A stretch of DNA of 64,000 bases from Tremella fuciformis (Eukaryota > Basidiomycota > Tremellomycetes > Tremellales > Tremellaceae): the NCBI GenBank assembly GCA_032768795.1, contig CP136500.1, forward strand, positions 186,001-250,000. The letters are read 5' to 3'. The notes below the pieces were generated by a model. The model had not been told where the DNA came from. It did no database searches and was given only the letters and a program-made list of their open reading frames with translations. The position numbers and the translations under genes were made by a program. Positions 5,417-21,709 of this stretch are shown one piece after another. The stretch's first letter is position 1. Every line of letters begins with the position of its first letter.

Positions 5417-5868
5417 CTCTCTTCAGCTCGTCCGCGATTCAACACGTCCGCCCAAAGGCATGTCCATTTTAATCCCGGTCGTGGGAGTTTTTGGTGGAGC
5501 TAATTTTTTGAACTTCATATTTGATGTCACCGCTCATCCGGTTTACCATGTTAACGAACCGCCTTGTTTACAGCGTCGAAACCGCATGCGAACCGCTGTT
5601 ATGATAGGTAGCAGTTGCATTCGAGTGTCAATCCTGCAGTTGCACCGGTTCTAGGCGATCGAGCGGTGTCGACAGCAGTGAGTGTCCTGTAGGACGCAGC
5701 TTTCGAAAGGTAGGCCCGTGCTTGAAAAAAAAACAGTAGACACTCCTTCAACGTTACCTGCTGATCGTACATACTAAGCCTACGCTGATGGAGTTTTGAC
5801 GTTGTACTTCATCTGCGCTTCACCTTTCAGCATCGCTCATAAGACCCGCTGCTCAAATCTTTTACACC
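5417..5868. other. intergenic, promoter of split gene
   Basis: No gene is seen. The stretch holds T-rich runs and an A9 tract near 5725-5733. It leads into the ATG at 5869 (context acaccATGgcc). If the following block is one transposon, its left end should lie here, but I found no terminal inverted repeat by eye. Confidence 0.4.
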
Positions 5869-6858
5869 ATGGCCAAGAATACGCCCAACCCTAGGTCTCG
5901 AAAAGCCCCTGTTTCCAATGCCAAGCCACCCTCCCCAACTCCGTCAAGGGCTAGGTCCCGGAAGACTCCAACTCGCGCATCGTCTGTTTGTTCTACGCGC
6001 TCTACTAGTCGAGCGGTCAGCCAGGCCTCGGGGCGCGATCGCACGTCCACCCCCCTCTCCGAAGCCCCTCCACTTCCCGGAGCGACTCTCGGTTTCGATG
6101 CCGTCGCCGAATGGAACACTTCACAGCGCCCTACAGATCCTGTCTTCGCCACAAGGGCTTCATTCTGCGCTGCGGAAGTCGCCGTTGGTCAGCCCATTCA
6201 GCCTCCCGAGCACTGTCCACCAACCTTCTTTCCCCCAGTCTCTGAGATATACGGGCTTCTTCGATGCATCCCGGCTGAGTCTCACGGTGAAGCCATGAAG
6301 GTTCGAAGCCACGGAATCAACTGCATTGTACCTGGAGTGAAAGGTCCTGTTTGTCATAAGGCTTGCCTTCCGGCTTTCATCTACACGTAAGTCTTCCCAC
6401 AGTCGCGGGGTGTTCAGGCCTGATCACCCAGGGCGGAAGATGTCAATTGTCGGCGATGTCAAGACAAGAAAGTTCCCACGATTATCTGGCAATGGTACTT
6501 TTTGGCAGACGGGAGAATGTGTCTTCGGACCTGCTGGTTCTACTATACCAGGGGCCTCAGCCACTGCACGATCAAGGAAGTCAAAAGAGATCGTATTCGA
6601 GAGCCGTCCGAAGCTCCATCCTCGAGTACAGTTGTGCGCCATGCTGCGACGGGCACTTCTCGAAAGAGGACCGACAGCCAGGCCAATTTCCTTGGACCAC
6701 CCTCTAAGCGGTTGTCCGTTGACACAGCTGGAGGCGGGCAGCTTTCGGATCCTTTCAGCCTGAACACCCAGTCCGGCCATGCCTCGTACCCTTCGTTGGG
6801 ATCAATGGGCGGTGTTTCCAATGAGCTGTCGTCCGTTGTCGGGACGCCGACAGATCCC
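5869..6858 (+). pseudogene. 5' part of Cys-motif/coiled-coil gene, split by copia
   Basis: Exons 5869-6386 and 6432-6858 with a 45-nt intron (GTAAGT...CAG, phase 2). The N-terminus is basic and rich in Ser, Pro and Arg. After the intron comes a Cys cluster: Cys179-x2-Cys182, then Cys203-x3-Cys207 and Cys218, with Trp and Tyr between, suggesting a small metal-binding fold. The frame runs into the copia LTR at 6859 and stops a few codons inside it. With the element and one ATCCC repeat taken out, codons continue without break at 11909. The joined gene is 2256 nt (751 residues). Its neighbour on the opposite strand is transposase-derived, so this may be an accessory gene of the same element. Function unknown. 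Confidence 0.7.
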
Positions 6859-7176
6859 CGACGGAAATAGGTAGTACGCTCACATGAGCTTGACTCAGCC
6901 TCGAGTAGCCTCGTCGAGGCACACACATCCTCGACGAGGTTGTGCCTCGACGAGGTTCATCCTCGACGAGGCAGGGGAAGCTGCCACAACGATAACTCCG
7001 CATATAACGCCGACACCCTCGACGACCTTGTAGAATGCCGCCGCCTGTTGCCCTCCTCATCACTCATAGCAAGTGCTGAGCGGGCAACAGGTAAGTCCGA
7101 ATGCATCACTCATAGCAAGTGCTGAGCGGGCAACAGGTGACCGGAATCCCATTGCCTCAGAGCTAAGATTCCGTCG
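6859..7176 (+). repeat. 5' LTR of copia 1
   Basis: 318 bp, ends CGACGG/CCGTCG. It carries several CCTCGACGAGG or CCTCGTCGAGG palindromes between about 6907 and 6972, and a ~46-bp internal tandem duplication (copies near 7058 and 7104) that the other LTRs of this family in the window lack. Confidence 0.93.
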
Positions 7177-7273
7177 TGGTAACGTCTCTTTCGACAAGTC
7201 GCGGTAGATAGAACGCGTCAACAAACTCGTCGACCTTGCCTACGCACCGCCAGCCTCGAAGTGGTCCTCCGTC

Positions 7274-10200
7274 ATGCCATCTGTGCAGACGGTGAAAGAG
7301 GAGCGCAAGCTCAACGGGCGCGACAACTACGCCCAGTGGGTGCGCGAGATTCGAGTCGTCCTCGGATCCGCCGGTCTCGTACCCCACATCACCAAGGACG
7401 CGTCAGCGATTCGGGCACTCGTCGAGGCTCGATATCCAGTGTCAAGTCCGGCGACAGCAGCCGAGACATCAAAGAGAGCAGTTGCTCTATACGAGCATGA
7501 GAAGGAGCAGTCCACCGCCCTCTCCACTCTCTACGGCAGTCTGACAGAGACTGTCCAAAACAAGCTTCCCTCGAACCTGATCGACTTCGAGAATCCTCAA
7601 CCGAAGGGGCTCTACGATCATCTGGTCACCACATATGGGGCCGACAACGGATCTCGCCTAGCCGAATTATGGTCATCGATATTTGGCGAGACCATCCCAG
7701 AGAATGAGGACCCCGAACCTCATCTCACAGCTATCCGGTCGCAACTGGCCGAAATCACCTCCTCCGCCATCACTTCCAAGCTCACCCTTGAGCAATTCGC
7801 CAACCAGATTGGCGCATACGCCGCCATCCGTCGCCTACCGTCCTCATACGGCCTCCTCGCATCGACCTTCTACTCAGGGACCTCGTCGAACAAGATCCAC
7901 CTCGACGAGGTTATCGATAGGGTCGCCGATGAACATCGCAGACGTCAACAAAAGGGCGAGAGCGTAAACGAGATGGGGATGCTCAGCAAATCTCTGCAGA
8001 AACCGGCAAGCAAGAGATGCATCCACCATCCGGATCAGGGGAGGCACTCCACAGATGAGTGCTGGAAAGTGATTGGAGTGCCGAAGCACATCCAGGAGCA
8101 AAGGTCGGCCAGGGAAGCAGCCAAGGGAAGGAAGCAGGGAGGACAAGCAAAGAAGGCAAGAGAGCAGATGGAGTCAGGGGATGACTCATCGAGTGAGAAC
8201 AAGAGAGGCTCGTCGAGGGAGACAAAGGAGGAAGGCTATTATGCGACGGAGATTGCACTACACGCCAACGACAACCTCCCATCCACCTCCATCATCATCG
8301 ACAGCGGTGCCACCAGTCCATTCATCAAGGACAAGCACCTTCTCTCACATCTCACCAAACTCGACAAGGCCGTCAAGATCCAAATTGGAGACGGATCGAT
8401 TGTCGAAGCTACACACTCCGGCCGCCTCACCTTCAACAACGTATGGTACAACAACGCCCTCTACGTTCCATCATTCTCGCATAACCTCCTCTCAACACAG
8501 CGCCTCGGTCCGTACACAGGGACACACTGGCGCTTCTCGAAGGACTCGGCTACATTGGTCGAGAAAGGGAAGGTCATCCTCCGGGGAAAGAAACTTGGCA
8601 ACCTATGGGTTGTAGACGACACACCGGTACGCACCACCTCGCGCATTCACCGAGCACTTCAGGCAATAGAAAACACTGAAGCCGAAGACACTCGCCTCCT
8701 CACCTGGCACAAACGTCTAGGTCACTCGAACATGAGGAAGGTGTGGGAGCTCGGGAAAGAGGGGAAGCTAGGCGCAAAGTGGACAGGGTCATTTCGGAGA
8801 GTCGAATGCATGGACTGCCTAAAAGGGAAGGCAACGCGCTCGGCATCTCTACCTAACCCTCGTCGAGCCAGCAAGCCCCTCGTCGAGGTATCAGTCGATC
8901 TATGGGGACCAGCGACCGTCCAGTCGAGAGAAGGCTTCCAATACTTCCTCACCTGCTATGACGACCACAGCAAATACGTGCAGGCCATACCACTCAAGAA
9001 GAAGTCGGATGCAGCCGAAGCACTGCAAGACTATATCAAGTTGGCAGAGAATCAGCTTGATCGAACAGTCAAGACCATCCGCTCAGACCAAGGAGGCGAA
9101 TTCACGAGCAAGGAATTCAGCCACTGGTGCAAAAGCAAGGGAATTGAGCACACCCTTACGCCGACCGACGCACACAACCAAAACAGTCGAGTCGAGCGCG
9201 TCCATCTCACCATCCTCAACGACATCCGGACATGTCTTGCGGACTCGAACTTGCCAACCCAGTTCTGGGTAGATGCACTGCGATATGTAGTCTTCACTCG
9301 GAACAGGCTACCAGGCTCCCACGCGAAAATCCCGATAACGCTCTTCCGACCAAACCACGACATCGACCTGCAGTACCAGGGGATGCAGCCATTCGGCCAT
9401 CACTGCATCTATCGAGTTGTGAACCCCGCATCGAAGCTCGACGAGCGGGGACAATGCGGTCGACTGCTGGGGTACACAGAAGGGAGCTGGGGCTACAAGG
9501 TGCTGACCCAATCCAACAGGGTCATCGCAAGCCGAGACGTCACATTCATCACGGGCAGGAAGACAACGCCCAGTTCAGATGAACCACGACAGATCCTGGA
9601 GCCGCCTCAACCTGGACCTCGACAACCATCGACGAGCCTCGACGAGGATGACGATACATCCATCGAGCTGAACGAGATAGTCGAGGCAGGGGAGGCACCA
9701 GAAGAAGAGGAACAAGGGGAAGAGATGGACGACATACCTCCCCAAGCCGTACCCAGGCAAGGAAGAGGCTGGGTCAATGAGTACATCCGAGAGGATGCAC
9801 CGAGCCCGGAACCGAATCCCGACGACGGACCAGAGGATCCCGATCGTCGACTAAACGAGCTCACAGCGGCCGATGCAGATGAGCCAAGACGGTCGGGGAG
9901 ACTAGCGGGCCAAGAACCTAGTCATCACCCTCTGCACGACATCGACATGGACTATAACCGAGTAGCCATAGAGCACGCGTTATCAGCCCAGTCACTCAAC
10001 AACCCCCAGTCGTACACCGAAGCTCGTCGAGCCGCAGACTGGGAGGATTGGAAATCGGCCATGGACGAGGAGATGGGAAAGATGGAGAAGTACGGAGTGT
10101 GGGAGATGGTTCCCAAGGAGAATCACCGCACTCTTACAGGCAAATGGGTATTCACCCGCAAGATCGACGGGGACACGGGCAAAGCGAGTCAGCACAAGGC

Positions 10201-11566
10201 CAGATTCGTTGTGAGAGGATTTCAACAAGTCTCAGGACGAGACTTCGACGAACTCTTTGCTTCGGTCACCCACAAGTCATCATTCCGCCTGTTCCTCTCC
10301 ATCGTCAACTACCTCGACTGGGAATGCGACCAAATAGATATCATTGGAGCATTCCTCAAGGCCAACATCGACAAGGACATCTTCATCGAGCCACCAGAAG
10401 GCAGCGACATCGCCGCCGGACACGTTCTGCACCTCCGGAAATCACTATACGGTCTCCGACAATCACCGCACTTGTTCAACAAGCGCCTCGACGAGTTCCT
10501 ACGGGAGCTAGGCTTCAAACCGACCCTAGCGGATCCATGCATCTACTCGCTGCGACAAGGACACAAGCGGTGCATGATCTCAGTCCACGTTGACGACATG
10601 CTCATAGCCGGCAACGATCGATCAACAATTGACGAGATCAAACGGAAGATCAACAAGGAACTCGAGTGCAAGGACCAAGGACCGGTCTCTTACTTCCTCG
10701 GTATCAACATCTACCGAGATAGGTCAAACAAGAAGATGTACCTGTCACAAGAGCACTACATCGAGGCAGTTCTTCAACGCTTCGGTGAACCCGGCAAAGC
10801 CTGCAAGACAATCTTGCCTGACGCAAAGCTCGTCGAGGCTACGCCAAAGGAGGTCGACGAGGCTCGAGATAAACCATTTCCAGCACTCGCCGGGTCAATC
10901 CTCTATATTGCCACGATCACCCGACCCGACATCGCCTACGCAGCATCACTGCTCTGTCGCTTCATCAGCAAATGGTCACTCGCACATTGGAGGGCCGCAA
11001 AGCACCTATTAAGGTACCTGCGAGGAACATCAGATCTCGCACTCACCTTTGACGCACATGCAGGAAGAAGAGCACTGCTAGGCTGGGCAGACGCAGACTG
11101 GGGTGGATGTCTCGACACACGTTGATCTACAACCGGCTACGTCTTCAATACATACGGGGGCATTGTGTCATGGAAAAGCAGGCGACAACCGACAGTCGCA
11201 CTCTCGACGACACAGGCCGAACTCCTAGCATCAACAGAAGCGGGCAAAGAGGCAATATGGCTCAGGCAATTATTGAACGACCTCGACCTCGGTATAGATG
11301 GGGCAGTGCCCATCTACAACGACAACAATGGAGCCATTCAACTGGCCAAACATCAACACGGGTTCAAGCTGAACAAAGCATTCGACATGCGAGCCCAGTG
11401 GATACGAGAGCATCAAGCTGGTGGACTGCTTGAGCTCAAATACACACCAACGGACAGCAACCGAGCCGACATCCTGACCAAGAACCTTTCGGCCGAGAAG
11501 ACGAGACAGCTTCGGCAGCTACTGGGCTTGGGAAGACAAGGAGAAGCAGAGCAGCAGAGTCAATAG
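7274..11566 (+). pseudogene. copia Gag-Pol polyprotein with internal stop
   Basis: One frame from ATG 7274, interrupted by TGA at 11123-11125 and open again to 11566. Visible in order: a Gag region with a Cys/His cluster (CIHHPDQGRHSTDEC), aspartic protease IDSGATSPF, integrase zinc domain (HKRLGHSNMRK...CMDCLKG), integrase core (DLWGP, SDQGGEF, SRVERVH for the D, D, E triad), reverse transcriptase (KARFVVRGFQQ, DIIGAFLKA, SLYGLRQSP, VHVDDML) and RNase H (STTQAELLAST, NDNNGAIQLA, DILTKNL). The second copy at 48.7-54.2 kb reads CAA (Gln) where this one has TGA, so the stop is a mutation within RNase H. It probably makes the copy non-autonomous unless the stop is read through. Confidence 0.93.
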
Positions 11567-11585
11567 ACATGCTCGCGAGGGGAGG

Positions 11586-11903
11586 CGACGGAAATAGGTA
11601 GTACGCTCACATGAGCTTGACTCAGCCTCGAGTAGCCTCGTCGAGGCACACACATCCTCGACGAGGTTGTGCCTCGACGAGGTTCATCCTCGACGAGGCA
11701 GGGGAAGCTGCCACAACGATAACTCCGCATATAACGCCGACACCCTCGACGACCTTGTAGAATGCCGCCGCCTGTTGCCCTCCTCATCACTCATAGCAAG
11801 TGCTGAGCGGGCAACAGGTAAGTCCGAATGCATCACTCATAGCAAGTGCTGAGCGGGCAACAGGTGACCGGAATCCCATTGCCTCAGAGCTAAGATTCCG
11901 TCG
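11586..11903 (+). repeat. 3' LTR of copia 1
   Basis: 318 bp and identical by eye to 6859-7176, including the internal duplication. It is followed by the ATCCC target duplication at 11904-11908. Confidence 0.93.
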
Positions 11904-13219
11904 ATCCCCTCGTCGGCACATTCCACTTTCGCACCGACAAAGATCGGTCAAGTGTCCCGACTCTAGGACAACAGCGGGCAACGAATGCTGCCGATGCTGT
12001 TCCAAGCCATCAGCCTAAACTACGACTGTGGCGACAATATCGACAGGAGTCTCGTTCACGTGGGGCCAGTGATTCGACTGAGCCTAATATTGCTGCCTCC
12101 TTGTCGGAAGCTCCCTTACAAGCAGAGGTCTTACCGCCTCCGTCAACTGAAGCCGTCCCTCCCCCACATGCCTCGAACGCGCCTCCCGAGCTCCAGACCG
12201 CAAATACAGAGACCATGGTGTCTGCGCCCGAGCAATTTAGCCTCCCGGTTCAGTCGTCCGTGCCTCGCCCGGATCTGCCGGCCCAGCTCAAGAGCTTGAC
12301 GTCCGAAGTCCTTGGTACTCTGTCATTCCCTTCCGATATTATCAGACGAACCTTGAAGGACATTGAAGCCGCCGAGATGCAATCCTCAATGGCGGTGAAC
12401 AGTCTTTTGGACCGATGTGAGGCGGTGTGGTTGCAAGCTCAAGTGGAACGCTTGGAGGTGGATGGTTTCCGCGCGGAGAAGGCGAAGACAGATCTCACCA
12501 TCAAAGCTCTCGAGCGTCGCCTGGTCCATTACACGAGTCAACTCAAGGAGAAAGACAAGGAGCTGGCTGCGATGAAAAAACAGCAAGAGTTCTTCGATGG
12601 CTTCGTCAACGATACCAAGGCTGAGCAAGCGGCACTTGACGAAAGGATTAGTGAGGCAATCGTCGAACGGGATCAAGCATTCGTAGACCGGGCGAACGCT
12701 CTTAGTGAAAGCACCGAACTGCGCCGGTCAGCTCGACAAGCAACGACACAACAAGATGAGGCGCTCGCTGCTCAACAGAAGGCGGAGCTCGCCATGGACG
12801 ATGCCTTCCTCGAAATCAGTGAAGCCAAGGCTCAGGCTGACGCTCTTGCGATTTCGAATCAGTCGCTCAAGGTTCGAATCGCGGAGTTGGAGAAGCTCCT
12901 TGCGTCCGCACCCGAGAGCTCTGAGCAAGGCCATCAGCAAGTATCGGAGCCAGATTTTCAAGCCTCCACGCTGTCAGCTTTTCCCGTCTTGGCTCCTCCA
13001 GCGATTCACCCTCCTATGGTGCATAGTCCCCTTGACATGCAAATGCCAGCCACGAACACCGAAGCGGATGGCAACATCTCGCAAAATATGCAAGCGCCAG
13101 GGGCTTTCAACCTTGAGGAGCTCGTCCCCGGATTCGAAACGGCATTTGACGCCATGCAAGAGATGGAACACACCTTTCCCGGGTCATTTGAGCCGCGTAC
13201 TCCTGGACGGGCCTCCTAG
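11904..13219 (+). pseudogene. 3' part of split Cys-motif/coiled-coil gene
   Basis: After the duplicated ATCCC (11904-11908) the frame from 6858 resumes at 11909 and runs open to the stop at 13219, about 436 codons. The first ~100 codons are Pro, Ser and Ala rich. A long coiled coil follows (about 12340-12910) with dense Glu, Lys, Gln, Leu and Ala heptads, then an acidic, Met- and Pro-rich tail. The stop faces that of the minus-strand protease gene only 73 bp away. An independent start at an internal codon is possible, but the exact frame match across the copia element favours one original gene. Confidence 0.7.
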
Positions 13220-13292: not shown

Positions 13293-14861
13293 CTAGACTG
13301 CGTGCGATCTTCTTTGGTTGAACTGTATTGAAAGACGGCAAAGATAGACCTCGAACCGAGCTTTCCAGCTCGCAATTTCCCTCATTACACCTGGTTCGAC
13401 GAGCCAGTGATCGCTTACCATGCCTGCCTCACTCTCTGAGAGTTTCTTCACCGAATGAAGTACTTCGTCCATGAAGACCATGACAAGCGAGTCACGTAAG
13501 AGGAAGATTCCGGCGTCAGAGTAGGTCTCGTTGTGAAGCCCAAGATGAACAGCAGTAGGACGGACCCCCTGAAATACCATGATGGCGGCCGCAGTTGCCA
13601 ATGGGCCGCAACTATTGCCGTCGTTTTGCTTAACCCATCCCAAGCGATCCCGGAGCAACTGCCAGTCAGACAGGACCTCTGGTTCTCCTCCAGCTGCACT
13701 CACCGGGATGTTTGGTGCAAATATCCAATTCTCGTTGTCCTCGGGCGTCACCCACCCTTTTTTCAACTCGTATTCGAGGCGACTCGACAGCAGAGAAGTC
13801 CATCTCTGTACCGCATCAGCAATTCGAAGATACCGCCGACTGGACTGGAATGCCTGACTTTTTTAAGATCTGGATGATCCAACCTTCCACCCTCTCCGTC
13901 AAGAGGAATGATCAGCCTGGCTGGTCCAAAGATCATGAGTGCCGCAAAATGTGTCTGAAATCGTACCGATACGACTGAGACGATGATTTGGCCTCTCCAC
14001 GAGGCGTCACGTCCAAGTCCTGGCCAGGGCACATAATTCGCCCTCGAGTCGAAACCCAATCGAGGTTTGGGAATTGAGTTCTGCTCCCAGCTCAATAGAC
14101 TGACCACATAACGACAACGCCGCACGCTCCTGGGGTCCGTTCTCAATACCCGCATATAGCCGGCCTCACACAAGGCATCGATCGCATCTGATCGCCACCA
14201 GGCGTTGTGTTGTCCTAGAAGCGCGAATTGACTTCGAGGGAACGTCACTGGTCCGGCCTTGATGCCCAGGGTTGTGGGATCTATTCCCGGCCGACCGGAT
14301 CTATTACGCGATCTCGAGTCTAGGACCAAAAAGAACTCAGGAGACAGCAAGGGTGGTGGATTCGTGCCGCTCGAGTCCTCGTTGGCAATGGTAATGATGT
14401 TACGAGCCGGCGAAGTGTTACCGGTCAAGTCGCCGTCCCAAAAGATCCTTTTATATCTCTGCAATGCCGCCTCGACTTGCTCCTCTTCAGACAATGCTGC
14501 GAAATCTATCGGCTGGACGTATCCTTCGTCGATCACAGGCATTACTTTGTTTTCGTCCACTTCTTTGCTGATACCTGCGATAGTCGCAATAGGTCGACTT
14601 GGATGACCGAACCTTTCCGTTTCCTCGTCCGAAGGTGTGCTGAGTCTGTCGTTGGCGGGATCGGTAAGATCGATCAAGTTGACAACTTTGCTCGGCTCCA
14701 CTTTGCTCAGGCCATTGCTTGTTTTGACGTCAAACTTTTCTCCATCTCTTCCCTCGTCGGTTTCCTTTCGCTGGTCAGGTGAACATCCAGCTTGCAACGA
14801 CACAGGGTTGGCATTGGTGGGGTCGATGTTGTCGTTCGAGACATTTTGATCTTTGTAGGAG
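13293..14861 (-). pseudogene. Ulp1/SENP-like (C48) cysteine protease domain, severed
   Basis: Exons 14861-13884 and 13839-13293 (44-nt intron, GTTGGA...CAG, phase 2). The C-terminal half shows the Ulp1 fold markers: GQHNAWWRSDAIDAL for the entry helix, THFAALMIF with the His codon at 13951-13949, IIPLDGEGG with the Asp at 13900-13898, and WVKQNDGNSCGPL with Gln and the Cys codon at 13610-13608. All expected catalytic residues of a de-SUMOylating or related peptidase are present. The ~190 residues before it are acidic linker. There is no start of its own: with the LTR 14867-15565 and one TCGGA repeat removed, its frame continues directly from the USP region. It appears to be the C-terminal domain of a USP-Ulp1 fusion. 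Confidence 0.8.
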
Positions 14862-14866
14862 TCCGA

Positions 14867-15565
14867 TGTTAGGGCCTGGCTAGCTGCTGCCCAAGAAGGG
14901 TTGAGCTAGCAAGGGTGGACGATTGACTGGTGGCAAGTGATTGCCACGGATACTCTTCAGCAGTACTAGGGCTAACTGGAAGCAGTGATGATGAAGAAGG
15001 GAATAGTGGGAGAGCTCCGGACGATGACTGAGGATCCTGGACTTGCTTATAGAAGGGCAAGCCAGTCAAAGTATCCGGTGATGATGGGTTGCTGACCTGA
15101 GTTGAGGATCAGGTAGACTGATGATGGGTGGCAAAAGAGATGAGAGTAACAATGAGATATTGGATCCTTGAGGTCAGAAGGGCCTCAAGGTGGGGGTATT
15201 TATCCCCAGAGCTGGGTGGCAAACCCAGCTCCTGGAAGGCTATGGAAGGCTATAGAATAGTATGAACTGTCCAATCAGATAAATGCCTCAACGATGTCAT
15301 GTCATGAGGGATTTATCAACCAATCAGATTCTTCTTCTAGCACAGCTTTGCTTACTCAGCATTCCCATGATGTCATTTGACCCTGACACCTTTGTACCTG
15401 GATTGTACATTGTGTCGTACGGAATGTGGTGGAAGATTCCATGGGTGGCAAGCCATGGAAGATCATGGAAGGTGGTGGAAGGTTGAGTGGCAAATCCATG
15501 GAAGGTCATGGAATGTTGTGGAAGGTTGCCACTGGGAGCTGAGGTGTCAGGACTGGGTCATGACA
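14867..15565 (-). mobile_element. solo LTR, 699 bp, inside the protease gene
   Basis: Ends TGTTAGGGCC...GGTCATGACA on +, with the 5-bp target duplication TCCGA at 14862-14866 and 15566-15570. No internal retroelement coding is present. It contains repeated CATGGAAG and TGGTGGAAGGTTG-like blocks near 15440-15530. Orientation is uncertain. Confidence 0.85.
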
Positions 15566-17554
15566 TCCGATAGCAACGTCAATGGCAGTTGCAGCATCTC
15601 GAGACCGTGCAAGGGTGAAAGTGGCACCTGTTCGCTTGCATTCGGTGTCGTCTTTCTCCCAAGAACGCTGATGTGTGTGCCGATTGAGGCCGGGGTTTCC
15701 TGCTGCAGACAATGAGTCGGCGAGGGGACAGTTGCTAAAACAGTCGGACCAGGAACCGTCTCAAAGTCAAATGAAGAAGTCATTGTCAGTGCTGGACTGT
15801 CTGGCTGTTCGATCGTCTCGTTGGTGTTCCGCTGTGGGTCTTCGAATGACTCGGACGTCGATTGTATGGGATTCGATGGGTTATCGGAGGGCATGATACT
15901 GCATTCCGCCGCCTGTTCTGTCCCGTCGCATGGCTCATTTGTGAACTCGGAGATCTGTGACACGTCTTTGGACTCCGGTGACGCATTCGAAGTGCTTTTC
16001 GGAGTTGGTTCACCAGCGTTCTTAGCAGTCGGCACAGCGGCATTCGTTGTGATCGATACCTGTTTCTGCTCTGATTGGTTGGGAGCCAGCATCCAGCGTT
16101 CTTGACTGTACAGCGGAGCCCTGAGATTGATGTCTGGCGTCTGTGACTTTGTGTCACTCGTCTCGGTCATGTAGCCGGGTACGCCGCGGAGATGTAGTTT
16201 GCGCAAATACTCGGTCAAGACATCGCCGGATTCGATCCCGCTTACATCTGGACTTGAGGCAGAATTGTAGATAAGCATTACGGGGTACCGGCCCCCTTCG
16301 AACGCCTGCGTGCTGGGCGTTGGGGTGAAGGTCGCCTCGGTATCGTCCAGTATCCACCAACTATGTCCAGTGCCGACGATGGCAACATAATGTCCGAGGT
16401 CGGTCGTCAAGCCATGACGGCAGATGATTCCTCGCAGCTCGTAACGTATAATTTTCTGGGTCCCGTCTAGATCATACGTCCTCCTGAGGCGTAATGATGG
16501 AGGAATGGCGAACTTCCTATTGACATTTACCTGTATCTCGACGTGGTTGGCGGCGTCCTTGGATCCTGTCAAATCGGTGTCAGGCCCAGCTCTTGTATTG
16601 ACCACCCGGGCTCCCCATGCGATGTCGATGTGCAACGCTGGTGGGCAATTCATGAGATAGGTATGCGAGGCGACACCGGTGGATGCTCTGCCACAATTTG
16701 GCCATCGGCATTGACGATCCAAAACCTTACTGAAACGCAAGCTGTTTCTCAACATTGCTTCGAATGTGGAGAAGGTCTCGTCGGCCGGATATATCGGGAT
16801 GCTGGAGTGAAGCTGGGCCGTGTCGGAGGCGGGGTGGCACCTTTCACAGCGGGGACACCTCCATGAGTATACTGCGCCTAATCGGAAAATCTTGCCGAAA
16901 GAGGGATGCAGTCCGTCCAGATACCCTAGCAGTTTTCCGCATACCTCGCTGGGATCCTGCTGCTGGTCCGCCGAATCTATGATGTTGTGAACTGATCATC
17001 AGACCATGCTCCTACGGTCACTCAAGGAGCTCACGTTTCAGAAGGCCTTTCAGCAGGGGAAATGATCTGGCCTGCTCACCGGCCAGGGACACCCTCATCG
17101 CGCGTAATTGGTTGACGAGAGGGTCAGTCGACCGCTTTGGTAGTTCGGCCATTCGTCCAGCAAACGCGTCGAGTTGGAAAAGAACTTGCAGTAGAGCCAG
17201 CGCATAGCAATCAACGCCCGTGTTCACGAACCCGAGAGGGGAGCTTTCATCGACGGCTCGACGAGTTTTCCTCAAAAGTCCTAAACTCGATTGGGGTACA
17301 GCCGGAAATGGGCGTTTGGTTGGGTCCGTAGCCACATCATTGACGCTCAATACTTGGGGATCTACGCCAACCGCCTGCATTCGCCTTTCCACCACGAACT
17401 CTCTCGATGAACTCGAAACAGGAGCGACCCTTCCTGAACCAGGTTTTCGACCTCGGGAAGGACGGGGTGGCACTCGAGGGAGATCCTTGAGTTCCTTGAG
17501 ACCCTTAAGATCCTTACGAGGTCGAATTGCAGTGGGCGTCGCCTTGGCCTCTGA
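15566..17554 (-). pseudogene. ubiquitin-specific protease (USP) domain region
   Basis: Exons 17554-17035 and 16991-15566 (43-nt intron, GTGAGC...CAG, phase 1). USP boxes occur in order: Cys box GFVNTGVDCYALALLQVLFQ (Cys codon 17209-17207), QQQDPSEVCGKLLGYLDGL matching the QQD box, a zinc-finger-like CPRCERC with a later CRWPNC, and His box DLGHYVAIVGTGHSWWILDD (His codon 16392-16390). This is a peptidase C19 layout that would cleave ubiquitin or a ubiquitin-like protein. The ~280 residues after the His box are low-complexity Ser, Thr, Pro, Glu linker. The region lies in frame directly behind the transposase TGA at 17557-17555. The first in-frame ATG comes only about 58 codons later, which argues for an original fusion. 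Confidence 0.8.
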
Positions 17555-20500
17555 TCAGGAACGGTTCGATTTCAAAACGCTTTTAGTGGGTGTGAGTTTA
17601 GTGGGTGTGAGGTTGGAGGGATCTGTTTTGGTCGGGCTTGCTCTCGGCTCCGTATTCGAGATTGGGGAAGTGTCAACTGGTGGCACGTAATCCACAGCGC
17701 TTGAATCGGCTGGTGGCATCGTCGCTGGCGCTGGAGCAAGAACGTTCGAAGTGGTAGGTGCAGCCGACGTGGTCTCAGGAATTCCCATCACTGCCGGCGG
17801 AGGAGGGTAAGAGGGGATTGACGTGGAGTCAGCCGCATTGTTACGGGGAAAGGGAGGATATGGCCACGGGCCAACAGGAGGAGGGTAGTAGAAGGTGTTC
17901 AGATTGCCCATCGGAGGTAGAAGATAGTACGGTAGGGAAGGTGCAGCAGGAGCAGGGTACCCGGGAGGAATGATCTGACCCGCAGGAGTATTCGCTGAGG
18001 GTTCCAGTGCGGACATCACATTTGCTTCGATGTCTTCGACTGACGGGGCCGCAGCCTCATTTGCAAAGGAGTCCGGGCAGGGTGTCTCCGTTGGCTGAGA
18101 TCCCGCGGAAGGATCTTTATCTTTCGATGCGGTAACAGCTTTTCTTGAGGGGTTTAACGGGCGAATTAACGCGGGTCTGCCTCGAAGCGATTCTGACAAC
18201 TCTGAATTATCGGTGTTATGTGTATCGTTGTCATAGATTTGGTGACGTCGCCCAATGGGGCTGACCTCGCGCTGATTGGGAGTTGTTTCGTAACGAGCCT
18301 CCTCGGCCACGCATGAGCTGACTGCGCAAGCTTTGGCAATGCTGGGCTTGAGCTTCGGACGAGGTACATATCCGGGGTTGAGGTCGACTTTTGCCATATT
18401 TGGTAGGCGGGACACATCATCGCCCCAGTATGCCTTGAAGTCCTTGCGCTCGTCGGCGTAGGGGTTCTCGTCTGGTGGCGTTGGCTTCCCCGAATCGAAG
18501 AGCTTTTCGTCCTGTCTACGTAGGAACTCTTCTATCCTCTCGCTGTTTTCTTCGAACGAGGACACGGGACCGCAAAGCTCGAAGGTGACCATGGCCCAGA
18601 GATGGAGGCAACGCTTGCCAGTGCCGCTGAAGTAGTTGCAGGTGCAGACTTCTCTTTCGTTCCCAGGTCTTCGCCCGCAGAAATAGGGCTGTTTCGAAGA
18701 TGCATTGCGTCGAGGAGCATTCACGCGGTACACCTCCCCGCCAAATTTGTTCTGATGAATTCCTGGGACTGAGGCGTGTGGACACGGGTGTATGCAGTCG
18801 GTCTCCCACCGATGCATACCGCGAAAGAGATTCCGTTGCAGACGAGGATCGGCTCTTGACTGATTTTGCGGGACATGATCATAAAATGCAAAGTAGGCAT
18901 TGAGGAGAATGGTGATCAGTCTGTTGAGTCTAAAGATGGTCAGCACCGGCGCCCAGTTGTCCGGGCCCACCACTGACCGCTTGTTCGCCAGACATCCCAA
19001 AAATATCCTGTCGAACGTCCGGAAACTGGCTTCGACGTAATTATTTGTGGACCACGGACCGTCTCGTGTGACTTGTGTTGGAAGTCCGTAGTCGACGACA
19101 AAGTCTCTCCAACGATCGCTGAACCACTCTCTATCAAGGTAGCTTTTGACTAATTTCCAAGTTTCGCCCGAGTCGCGCGCGATTCTCGTCACCTCGCTAC
19201 CGAGAGCCGAATAGTACTGATCCCATTGATCTTCATCCGGACATCTCTGACACTGTCGAATGGCATCGAGGACAGCCGAAGTAAGGAGATCGGCGTTCAG
19301 ATACTGTCCGAATATGCGGCAAATCTTGGATCGGCAGGCTTGCATAACGTGAAACTGGCAAGCTCGAATTGGGACACCGGGAAAGACTTGCTGGATTCCT
19401 CGTCGCTCTGCATCATTGCCATCAATCATCACAAATCGTGGGGTCAGACCATCCTTCTCCGTAGCTTTACAGATAGCTCGCAGTTTCTCGTCAGACGTGC
19501 CATCAATCTTGATGTAATATTCGCCTCGTAGGTAAGCGCGAGCTGTCTCGCGCACTGCCTTATTGAATTCAGATAGCATGTACGCGTACGCCTCTGTATC
19601 TGCGTGATTCGAAACCATTGTGGCGACTGATATGAGCCCAGATACAAAGGCAACTCGCCGATTCGCGTCAAAGCCACTCACGGGGAATCATTCGATGGTA
19701 TTCATTTAGCGTCACAAGGAATGTGAGGGGGAACTTGAACGCATTTTTGTTCCTCCATGAGGAGTCCAAGTACATCCCCATCGCCAGGACCTGAATCATG
19801 GCCCTGATCTGTGCAGAGCGAGGTGCGATCACGCATTCAAAGCGCGTGTTCTTGGCTAACCGCTTCCCTGCATTGAGATCCTTGAGCAGCTTCGGGTATC
19901 GCGCACTACATATTAGTCCGGACCGACAGAAACAATGCACGCGCACGCAATAAAGGACTCCGGATGACGAGAAGCAAGAACCTCGATGGCAGCCAAGGGG
20001 CTTCGATCGATTCGAACACTGGATTTGGCGGTGTCCACCGCTGACTTGTAATCTTTAGGACGAGGGAGACGATGAGGGCAAGCGGAAGCAAGCCACTGCG
20101 CATGTGTATCGACCTGAAGAATGTGCTGGGCGTACCCTTCGCGTCAGACTCCATTGGAGATCTACGCAGACAATCACTTACAAGCGGTGAGCCGACCGAC
20201 CGTAACACCGAACAGCAATGCGGCCTCATGTAGTAGGCGTCGCAGATAAGGAGACACCCTCAGACCTTCTTCCGCTCCGGGGGTATGGTATTTCGGATCC
20301 TTCATGATGAGCGTACACTTGCCGGTCTGGGACTGGGCGGCCGTCATTTGTACCTGTTCATAGTTTAGCTCGTTGCGCTGTCACTCATCAAAACGATGGC
20401 TCACAACAAGAAAAGCATCACAGATCTTGGTTCGAGGGGGTACAGGCTCGCCTATCTGCTTCGACGGCGACTTCGACGGCGACTTAGATTGCTCCGTTGG

Positions 20501-21709
20501 GAGTTCGGTCTCTTCCTCGTCGTCCGTATAATCCAGCATGTCTTCGCTGTCGTAATCTTCCGAGAACTCGCAATCCTCTGCATCGCTACATGAGTGCTGA
20601 TCTTGCTCGGGACTTGAGTGCCCGCCACCGTATACCGGTACTGGTGGCTCGACAGATTCGCTCTCACTATCGCTCTCCAGCTGCAGTAGATCAGAATCAT
20701 CCCGAGGTGATGTTGTCGGATCCGCGGGAGTTCCATTATTGGCTTTCTTCCAACGGCGATGACCGTGGCCTGCAGCTCGGAATATCTGTTTTGCCGCAGT
20801 GTCTTTCCGAGAGATGGTCGGTTGCGAGTTGGGCCGCTCAATTCGGGTCAAACAGCATCCGTTGCACTGGTATTTGACGCGCCAAATGACACGGTCTGGT
20901 TCGTTGATAGCCAAGGCTCTCGGATAGTGTATGTGGAATCGACGGGCTCAAATATCGCTGGGAATGATTCCCGGACCATCGTGCCATCTTATGGACGCTT
21001 TCTTGTACAAAACGTGACTGCGAATATTGTAATTGAATGGCTGCGCAGTCAGTGAAAGTGCTCGCCAAGGGTTGAAAGCGCTCACCAGATTTTCGAATCT
21101 CTTCAGTAATCCAGATACTCTGGTTTCAGTTCGAATGTATCCTTGTTCCGCTGTGAGCTCCGTCTGCATTCGGCGGAGGGGTTCGGAAGCGAGATCCACT
21201 CCAAGAGTAGGAAAGTCCGGTCCAGACGAATGACCCTCTTCATCGGGATCGGAATCAGTATCAGTCTTGTCGGACATCACAGTCATGTCTGCAGCCATTC
21301 GATGGTCAGGCATGCTCCAGTACGATGCCAGCCAGCGATTGTGGCTTGCTACTTCCTCCGCCGTGAGATTGTCCCGCGGTTGACTGAATCTTCGACTCTT
21401 CTTTCGCTGAACTGCTCGATCCATAGCCGGACTGAGGTTTCTCTTGTTGGCAATGGTGTTCTTACCGGGAAGAGGTCGCAAGCGATGATCAGGAGGTTTC
21501 GAAATCCGACCTGCAGGAGTGGGGGACGATGCGGGTGACTCGAAGGCAGTGTCGGTTGAATGCCGTTTGTGACTAGCGGAGGGTCGCTCGTCAGGCGCCG
21601 CGGTATACAGTCGGCGGGGGCGCCCACGCTTGCGTGGCGCAGCACGTTTGTCGATGACATCCGCTGCGAGGATTCCTGTGGGAGGTGTTCGAGGGTTGAA
21701 GCTGCTCAT
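17555..21709 (-). CDS. MULE-type transposase with AT-hook and SWIM finger
   Basis: Starts at ATG 21709. An AT-hook (PRKRGRPRR) lies near the N-terminus. Introns 21085-21041 and 19681-19627 are well supported; those between about 21000 and 19950 are not resolved. The MULE DDE core is visible: MYLDSSWRNK (first Asp, 19766-19764), RFVMIDGNDAERR (second Asp, 19423-19421) with CQFH just after, and STNNYVEASFRTF (Glu, 19033-19031). The SWIM zinc finger CTCNYFSGTGKRCLH is at 18646-18602. A Pro-rich tail follows and ends at TGA 17557-17555, beyond which the same frame stays open into a USP domain. It would bind and cut transposon ends in the nucleus. No terminal inverted repeats were found. Confidence 0.85.

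What the first reader, a model, noticed from the sequence alone, without database searches (positions are those of the whole stretch)
13293..21709. MULE transposase, USP deubiquitinase and Ulp1 protease in one reading frame
On the minus strand an AT-hook/DDE/SWIM transposase is followed in the same frame by a USP domain (Cys, QQD and His boxes) and then a Ulp1 domain (His, Asp, Gln, Cys). Only a TGA and a solo LTR separate the parts, and removing the LTR plus one TCGGA restores one frame (post-TGA exons sum to 3471 nt). Plant MULEs with Ulp1-like proteases are known. I know of no transposase joined to both a deubiquitinase and a SUMO-type protease. Such an element could strip host ubiquitin/SUMO marks from its transposase or from silencing factors.
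Basis: partly seen in the sequence, partly recalled or inferred. Interest (0 to 1): 0.88.

Follow-up and report, generated by a model that had tools for sequence, protein, structure and literature searches.

The report
Jumping gene fused to two proteases
A family of fungal jumping genes appears to make its cutting-and-pasting enzyme as one long protein that also carries a ubiquitin-removing and a SUMO-removing type of protease, so the element may erase the cell's protein tags on itself or on nearby chromatin; the copy in this window is an old, broken member.

The parts
20948..21709 (-). N-terminal coding stretch from an ATG at 21709, with AT-hook RKRGRPRR; ends at an in-frame TGA (20948-20950)
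   Evidence: seven of seven relatives printed are open at the TGA position
20381..20947 (-). next N-terminal coding stretch (ARRF...IWRVKYQCNGCC)
   Evidence: similar to E6 and, weakly, E8; to E2, E3, E7 by eye
19668..20054 (-). coding stretch with first catalytic Asp of the DDE transposase (19764-19766)
   Evidence: (E6 3.8e-15)
17555..19687 (-). MULE transposase ORF: second Asp, Glu, SWIM finger, conserved linker motifs; ends at TGA 17555-17557
   Evidence: (MULE 1e-5, SWIM 0.02, both under Pfam's cut-off there)
17035..17554 (-). USP first exon with catalytic Cys (17207-17209)
16992..17034 (-). predicted intron (43 nt) at the same place as in E3, E5, E6, E7, E8, E9; one of four candidates here
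15571..16991 (-). USP second exon with QQD Asp, His and Asp boxes, then linker up to the LTR
   Evidence: (UCH_1 1.7e-7)
14867..15565 (-). solo LTR inserted in the linker; TCGGA at 15566-15570 and 14862-14866
13859..14861 (-). linker and first part of the Ulp1-like domain (Trp, His, Asp)
13293..13805 (-). last part of the Ulp1-like domain (Gln, Cys) and C-terminus; predicted introns at 13806-13858 and 13659-13703
5800..6387 (+). open frame holding the first exon of the convergent second gene of the element
   Evidence: 8 of 8 other places lie 3' of and convergent with a family element
11904..13219 (+). later exon of the convergent gene (coiled-coil by eye); the open frame itself starts at 11894, inside the Copia repeat
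   Evidence: 5 other places, in E5, E4, E3, E7, E2
6859..11903 (+). Copia retrotransposon with identical 318-bp repeats, nested in the second gene; ATCCC on both sides

Best explanation
The feature is an old, inactivated copy of a family of roughly 10-kb Mutator-like (MULE) DNA transposons. Their transposase is one multi-domain protein: an N-terminal DNA-binding region (AT-hook in the copies whose N-terminus I read, window and E6), DDE catalytic core, SWIM finger, USP-type (C19) ubiquitin-hydrolase domain, and C-terminal Ulp1/SENP-type (CE clan) cysteine protease. A second, convergent gene encodes a coiled-coil-like protein. Shown: the fused order, catalytic residues, folds, linkage in many copies, recent mobility of two lineages (E6, E8), and the same architecture in one annotated protein of another tremellomycete. 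Inferred from frame and splice sites: the splicing. Inferred: the protease domains travel to the element's ends with the transposase and remove ubiquitin and SUMO (or related modifiers) locally, protecting the transposase from proteasomal turnover and SUMO-linked repression and/or stripping marks from silencing and repair proteins at donor and target chromatin. The confidence below is for what it is; I put the functional reading at about 0.4.
Against: No transcript was available. Pfam Peptidase_C48 matches none of the pieces, and the sequence match to solved structures is weak (0.32, with unrelated phosphatases at 0.36). Of 20 ORF pieces scanned, 8 had no Pfam match at E<=0.1. In the E9 pair substitution counts outside the transposase part are small (4 vs 5 and 2 vs 2 replacement vs synonymous), and between lineages synonymous sites are saturated or nearly so. 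No strict intron candidate in E4; E2 not testable. Deep splits of the three domain trees conflict, with support of 86 or less. Only one annotated full-length homologue was found, and the single-sequence search with E6 found none. The window copy itself has two in-frame stops. Substrates are unknown; the Ulp1 domain could act on SUMO, NEDD8 or ubiquitin.
Confidence: 0.9

Rival explanations
1. Transposase and USP-Ulp1 are normally two proteins: the intron behind the USP Cys box is usually retained, giving a truncated transposase, and the proteases are made from a separate downstream start.
For: If this intron is retained, the frame stops inside it (E6, E8, window) or within about 25 nt after it (E3, E5, E7, E9); in E6 the downstream 672-aa ORF is open on its own.
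Against: The catalytic Cys of the USP lies upstream of the intron, in the transposase ORF, in eight of eight lineages read, so a separate downstream product would be a dead USP; yet the downstream His and Asp are invariant. The Kwoniella gene is annotated as one chain.
Confidence: 0.07
2. The proteases are passenger gene fragments captured as in Pack-MULEs and carried without function.
For: Plant MULEs are known to capture gene fragments (passages of PMC6431247).
Against: Same order in eight other lineages, with identity to the E6 sequence down to 22% (USP) and 25% (Ulp1), and in Kwoniella; catalytic residues invariant; replacement changes depleted.
Confidence: 0.03
3. The window copy is a domesticated host gene rather than a dead transposon.
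For: No close copy of its lineage (the best-scoring other match is 46% identical), no TIRs found, long open stretches retained.
Against: Two in-frame stops, an LTR in the coding region and a Copia in the partner gene.
Confidence: 0.05
4. The proteases act mainly on the element's own protein (auto-processing of a polyprotein) rather than on ubiquitin or SUMO conjugates.
For: Two proteases in one long chain.
Against: By eye no conserved Gly-Gly in the transposase-USP linker of alignment A3; its conserved motifs are SPI.RR and a GRP-containing one. The USP-Ulp1 linker was not aligned.
Confidence: 0.05

Closest known systems
Mutator elements with Ulp1 (plants, hydra, lancelet; Kaonashi and melon MULEs)
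   Same: Mutator transposon that encodes a Ulp1 domain (passages of PMC2836005; the name Kaonashi is recalled)
   Different: No USP mentioned for them in the passages read; here USP sits between SWIM and Ulp1, in a fungus
Transposase_11-domain protein with peptidase C19 in Trichomonas vaginalis (XP_001314237.1)
   Same: transposase domain with a USP-type hydrolase (passage of PMC2836005)
   Different: another transposase superfamily, no Ulp1 mentioned
Helitrons/Helentrons with VTD and OTU deubiquitinases
   Same: transposon protein with two deconjugating protease domains; 121 VTD Helitrons also carry OTU (passages of PMC9741609)
   Different: rolling-circle RepHel, other protease families, no SUMO-type protease in the passages read
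Ginger1 transposons
   Same: transposase with C-terminal OTU or Ulp1 (passages of PMC2836005)
   Different: Gypsy-integrase-like transposase; the table read lists OTU or Ulp1, never both, and no USP
Two-gene fungal Mutator elements such as Mutyl with MutB in antisense (and maize MuDR, recalled)
   Same: second gene on the opposite strand (table passage of PMC6446971)
   Different: kinship of the second genes not tested; that paper's main text has 0 occurrences of ubiquitin, protease, peptidase, Ulp

Membership tests
Mutator/MULE superfamily | MULE DDE domain with D, D, E and the C..H motif | tested here: met
   PF10551 28.7 bits, over the cut-off, in the genome search, 26.3 bits, under it, on the ORF alone; second Asp, CQFH and Glu invariant in 9 of 9; first Asp present in the window
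Mutator/MULE superfamily | 8-11-bp target-site duplication and long TIRs | tested here: met
   E6: TSDs of 10 and 9 bp at two sites, TIR about 114 bp at 86%; E8: TSDs of 9 bp at two sites, TIR by eye
Mutator/MULE superfamily (window copy itself) | TIR and TSD around this copy | tested here: not met
   no inverted repeat above shuffled background in the stretches compared; the pairs lie within the Copia. Membership rests on the transposase
Peptidase C19 (USP) | Cys, QQD and His boxes and USP homology | tested here: met
   invariant in 9 of 9; USP12 8.5e-18
Peptidase C48 / CE clan (Ulp1/SENP) | CE-clan fold with His-Asp-Gln-Cys | tested here: met
   in the window His-Asp are 17 and Gln-Cys 6 residues apart, as in yeast Ulp1 (recalled)
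Peptidase C48 / CE clan (Ulp1/SENP) | Pfam Peptidase_C48 above cut-off | tested here: not met
   no PF02902 match; in the genome search only two pieces, on C1, over 100 kb from the elements there
Peptidase C48 / CE clan (Ulp1/SENP) | SUMO-deconjugating activity | not testable with these tools
   needs an enzyme assay
Plant MULE-Ulp1 elements (Kaonashi type) | descent from the same transposase-Ulp1 association | not tested
   no plant sequences were compared

The most novel reading that the evidence does not exclude
These elements encode a self-contained eraser transposase that removes both ubiquitin and SUMO at the sites where it acts, as an anti-silencing or anti-degradation device. Retention of the short intron that splits the USP catalytic Cys from its His would switch between a protease-free transposase (possibly a repressor, as with P-element IVS3, recalled) and the full eraser.
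Probability: 0.25. Interest if true: 0.88.

Novelty: new variant of a known kind. Interest (0 to 1): 0.73.

Why it matters
Deconjugating proteases recur in unrelated transposons (Ulp1 in plant and animal Mutators, OTU and VTD in Helitrons, OTU or Ulp1 in Ginger1), but why has stayed open. Here both classes sit in the transposase itself, so ubiquitin and SUMO removal can be separated by inactivating one cysteine at a time in one protein. That makes the question of whether transposons must fight host ubiquitin and SUMO directly testable. The family also offers near-identical, recently moved copies in a fungal genome.

Tried and rejected
Single-sequence protein search with the E6 core: none at E<=0.001 among 7993 candidates scored. 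The profile search then found eight proteins among 7994 scored. A third search with the Kwoniella protease part found only itself and one Cryptococcus floricola protein that shares the Ulp1-like domain without a recognised transposase; its UniRef name, cut short, begins 'Ubiquitin-like protease famil'. So annotated full-length homologues of the three-part protein: one.

Folding the E6 USP-Ulp1 ORF alone gave a useless model (pLDDT 34.9). P0009 gave no Pfam and no PDB match.

I considered that TGA 17555-17557 lies in an intron, since TTCCTGATCAG resembles a branch and acceptor site. The only plausible frame-keeping donor that I found by eye is 294 nt upstream and non-consensus, against 42-50 nt for the six introns, so a lesion is more likely; not excluded. 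In E4 the strict intron pattern found no candidate, in the window four.

TIR search for the window copy: nothing above shuffles; one search listed six inverted pairs, all inside the Copia.

As a control, UCH has 29 places in the genome, 5 of them in these elements (E5, E6 three times, E4), the other 24 elsewhere.

Literature: searches (listings capped at 10-20 rows) showed no paper with a MULE carrying USP, or any transposase with both USP and Ulp1. The library holds open-access papers only, so this is absence in that library under those terms.

The host species was not identified.

Full report
What was checked. The window is contig C11:186001-250000 of an unnamed 28.1-Mb, 11-contig genome. 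On the window pieces Pfam gives MULE 1e-5 and SWIM 0.02 (both under cut-off), the USP Cys exon 0.02 (under cut-off) and the following USP exon UCH_1 1.7e-7 (over cut-off); it does not recognise the Ulp1 part.

Relatives in the same genome. The transposase ORF has 20 other places, the USP piece 13 and the Ulp1 piece 15 (lower bounds by the tool's own note, and some elements give two places). All 13 other USP places and 14 of 15 other Ulp1 places lie within 15 kb of a transposase match; in two cases (C1:8414773 and the C8 copy) the distance exceeds 10 kb and an insertion is likely. The one orphan, C5:55989, has Arg in place of the catalytic Cys. The copies fall into eight lineages besides the window (E2-E9, my labels). 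In eight of eight, the ORF holding SWIM continues without a stop into the USP Cys box. E8 and E9 lack the last His of SWIM. The remaining transposase matches are partial copies and were not read for this.

One protein. In E4 a single 664-aa ORF matches MULE, SWIM and UCH, each just under Pfam's cut-off. Over 20 ORF pieces of seven lineages, 12 had a Pfam match at E<=0.1: UCH or UCH_1 in 8, MULE in 5, Peptidase_C48 in none. In E6 the ORF with transposase core and Cys box (662 aa) and the ORF with the rest of the USP and the whole Ulp1 domain (672 aa) are separated by a 42-nt GTGAGT...CTGATGATCAG intron; spliced, they read 1322 codons to one terminal stop. The N-terminal exons with AT-hook and first Asp lie upstream and are not in that stretch. 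In six of eight sets scanned (seven other lineages and the window) exactly one canonical in-frame intron of 42-50 nt exists at this place (E3, E5, E6, E7, E8, E9; the E5 one lacks a branch-site match); E4 had none under the strict pattern, the window four, and E2 could not be scanned.

Another species. A profile of eight transposase ORFs, seven of which reach into the USP, returned eight proteins among the 7994 candidates scored. P0002, annotated in Kwoniella mangroviensis CBS 8507 (Tremellales) as hypothetical protein I203_106484, 1236 aa, has MULE at 137-170, SWIM at 386-406 (under cut-off), UCH at 567-846 (2.6e-15), then the Ulp1-like domain with QEDGHSCGPLAV. I saw no AT-hook in it. P0006 and P0008 are transposase pieces, and P0007 is a shorter Kwoniella entry that ends at the Cys box.

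Mobility. Two E8 copies are 99.8% identical over 10.3 kb, and two E6 copies 99.99% over 7.8 kb plus 99.9% over 1.6 kb. E6 has about 114-bp TIRs (86%). TSDs are CGACGCTATC and TTCAGCACG (E6) and CCTCCAGAG and CTCCACTTC (E8). These fit MULEs and show recent movement. The third E6 copy (C8) and third E8 copy (C10) were not read at their ends.

Second gene. Downstream of the protease end and convergent with it, E6 and E8 carry a gene for a Ser/Pro-rich, coiled-coil-like protein (by eye). Its first exon is similar to window + 5800-6387 (E8 1.9e-8, E6 5e-5). That frame has eight other places in the genome, and all eight lie 3' of, and convergent with, a family element (E2, E3, E4, E5, E7 and three E8 copies); E6 and E9 did not match in that search. 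The later exon corresponds to window + 11894-13219, with five other places in E2-E5 and E7. In the window a Copia element with identical 318-bp repeats splits this gene. The layout recalls two-gene Mutators such as Mutyl/MutB (table passage of PMC6446971).

Selection and history. In the two E9 copies dN/dS is 0.004/0.026 (transposase to Cys box), 0.004/0.015 (USP to Ulp1 His) and 0.007/0.022 (Ulp1 Gln-Cys end), on few substitutions. Between lineages, in the nine comparisons made, synonymous change is at or near saturation (pS 0.72-0.82) while replacement change is 0.17-0.48. Trees of the three domains (nine taxa each, E7 left out) all recover E8+E9 (100, 100, 99), E2+E3 (99, 79, 68) and E5+window (85, 89, 70); deeper splits conflict, with support of 86 or less. 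This fits one old fusion inherited as a unit, and does not prove it.

The window copy. It carries TGA at 20948-20950 and 17555-17557, a solo LTR, a Copia in gene 2, and no TIRs found. It is best read as an inactivated copy. No attempt was made to mend it.

Mechanism. Shown: architecture, catalytic residues, folds, mobility of relatives. Inferred: splicing, and that the proteases act on ubiquitin and SUMO conjugates near the transposase. The suggestion in PMC2836005 (passage) that the ubiquitin pathway takes part in transposition, and that in PMC9741609 (passages) that Helitron deubiquitinases might prevent degradation of proteins needed for transposition, both fit. I give the architecture about 0.9 and the functional reading about 0.4.

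Novelty. Individual pieces are known: Ulp1 in Mutators, Ginger1 with OTU or Ulp1, C19 with a transposase_11 protein, VTD plus OTU in Helitrons. Both a USP and a Ulp1/SENP domain in one cut-and-paste transposase was not seen in the searches. I call it a new variant of a known kind. Papers were seen as passages found by term (PMC2836005, PMC6446971, PMC9741609, PMC12730594, PMC12062965, PMC6431247, PMC11185503); all others only as search listings.

Noticed in passing
L031 (E5) residues 619-649 of ORF L031:1477-3453; L033 (E4) ORFs: GATA-type zinc finger between USP and Ulp1 in E5 (Pfam GATA 8e-4, 19.4 bits, under the cut-off of 26.8) and similar repeated CxxC patterns by eye in E4, where Pfam found none.
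   Followed up: partly
   Followed up: yes
window 6859-11903: Copia element with identical 318-bp repeats starting CGACGGAA and ending TTCCGTCG, flanked by ATCCC, nested in the second gene; a stop codon splits its long frame at 11123-11125.
   Followed up: partly
P0009 (Cryptococcus floricola B9479_006055): Protein with the same Ulp1-like domain (38% over 138 residues) but no recognised transposase: possibly another element's gene or a domesticated one.
   Followed up: partly
G000 C5:55989-56351: Orphan Ulp1-like piece without a transposase match nearby; the catalytic Cys is replaced by Arg.
   Followed up: partly
introns behind the USP Cys box in E3, E5, E6, E7, E8, E9 and the window: The intron splits the USP catalytic Cys from its His; retention would give a transposase without active proteases, reminiscent of P-element IVS3 (recalled).
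   Followed up: partly
alignment A3, linker between SWIM and USP: Short conserved motifs SPI.RRH and a GRP-containing motif in an otherwise variable linker.
   Followed up: no
G000 genome: 36 MULE matches in all, 9 of them in this family; the other 27, among them all the strongest, were not examined for extra domains.
   Followed up: no
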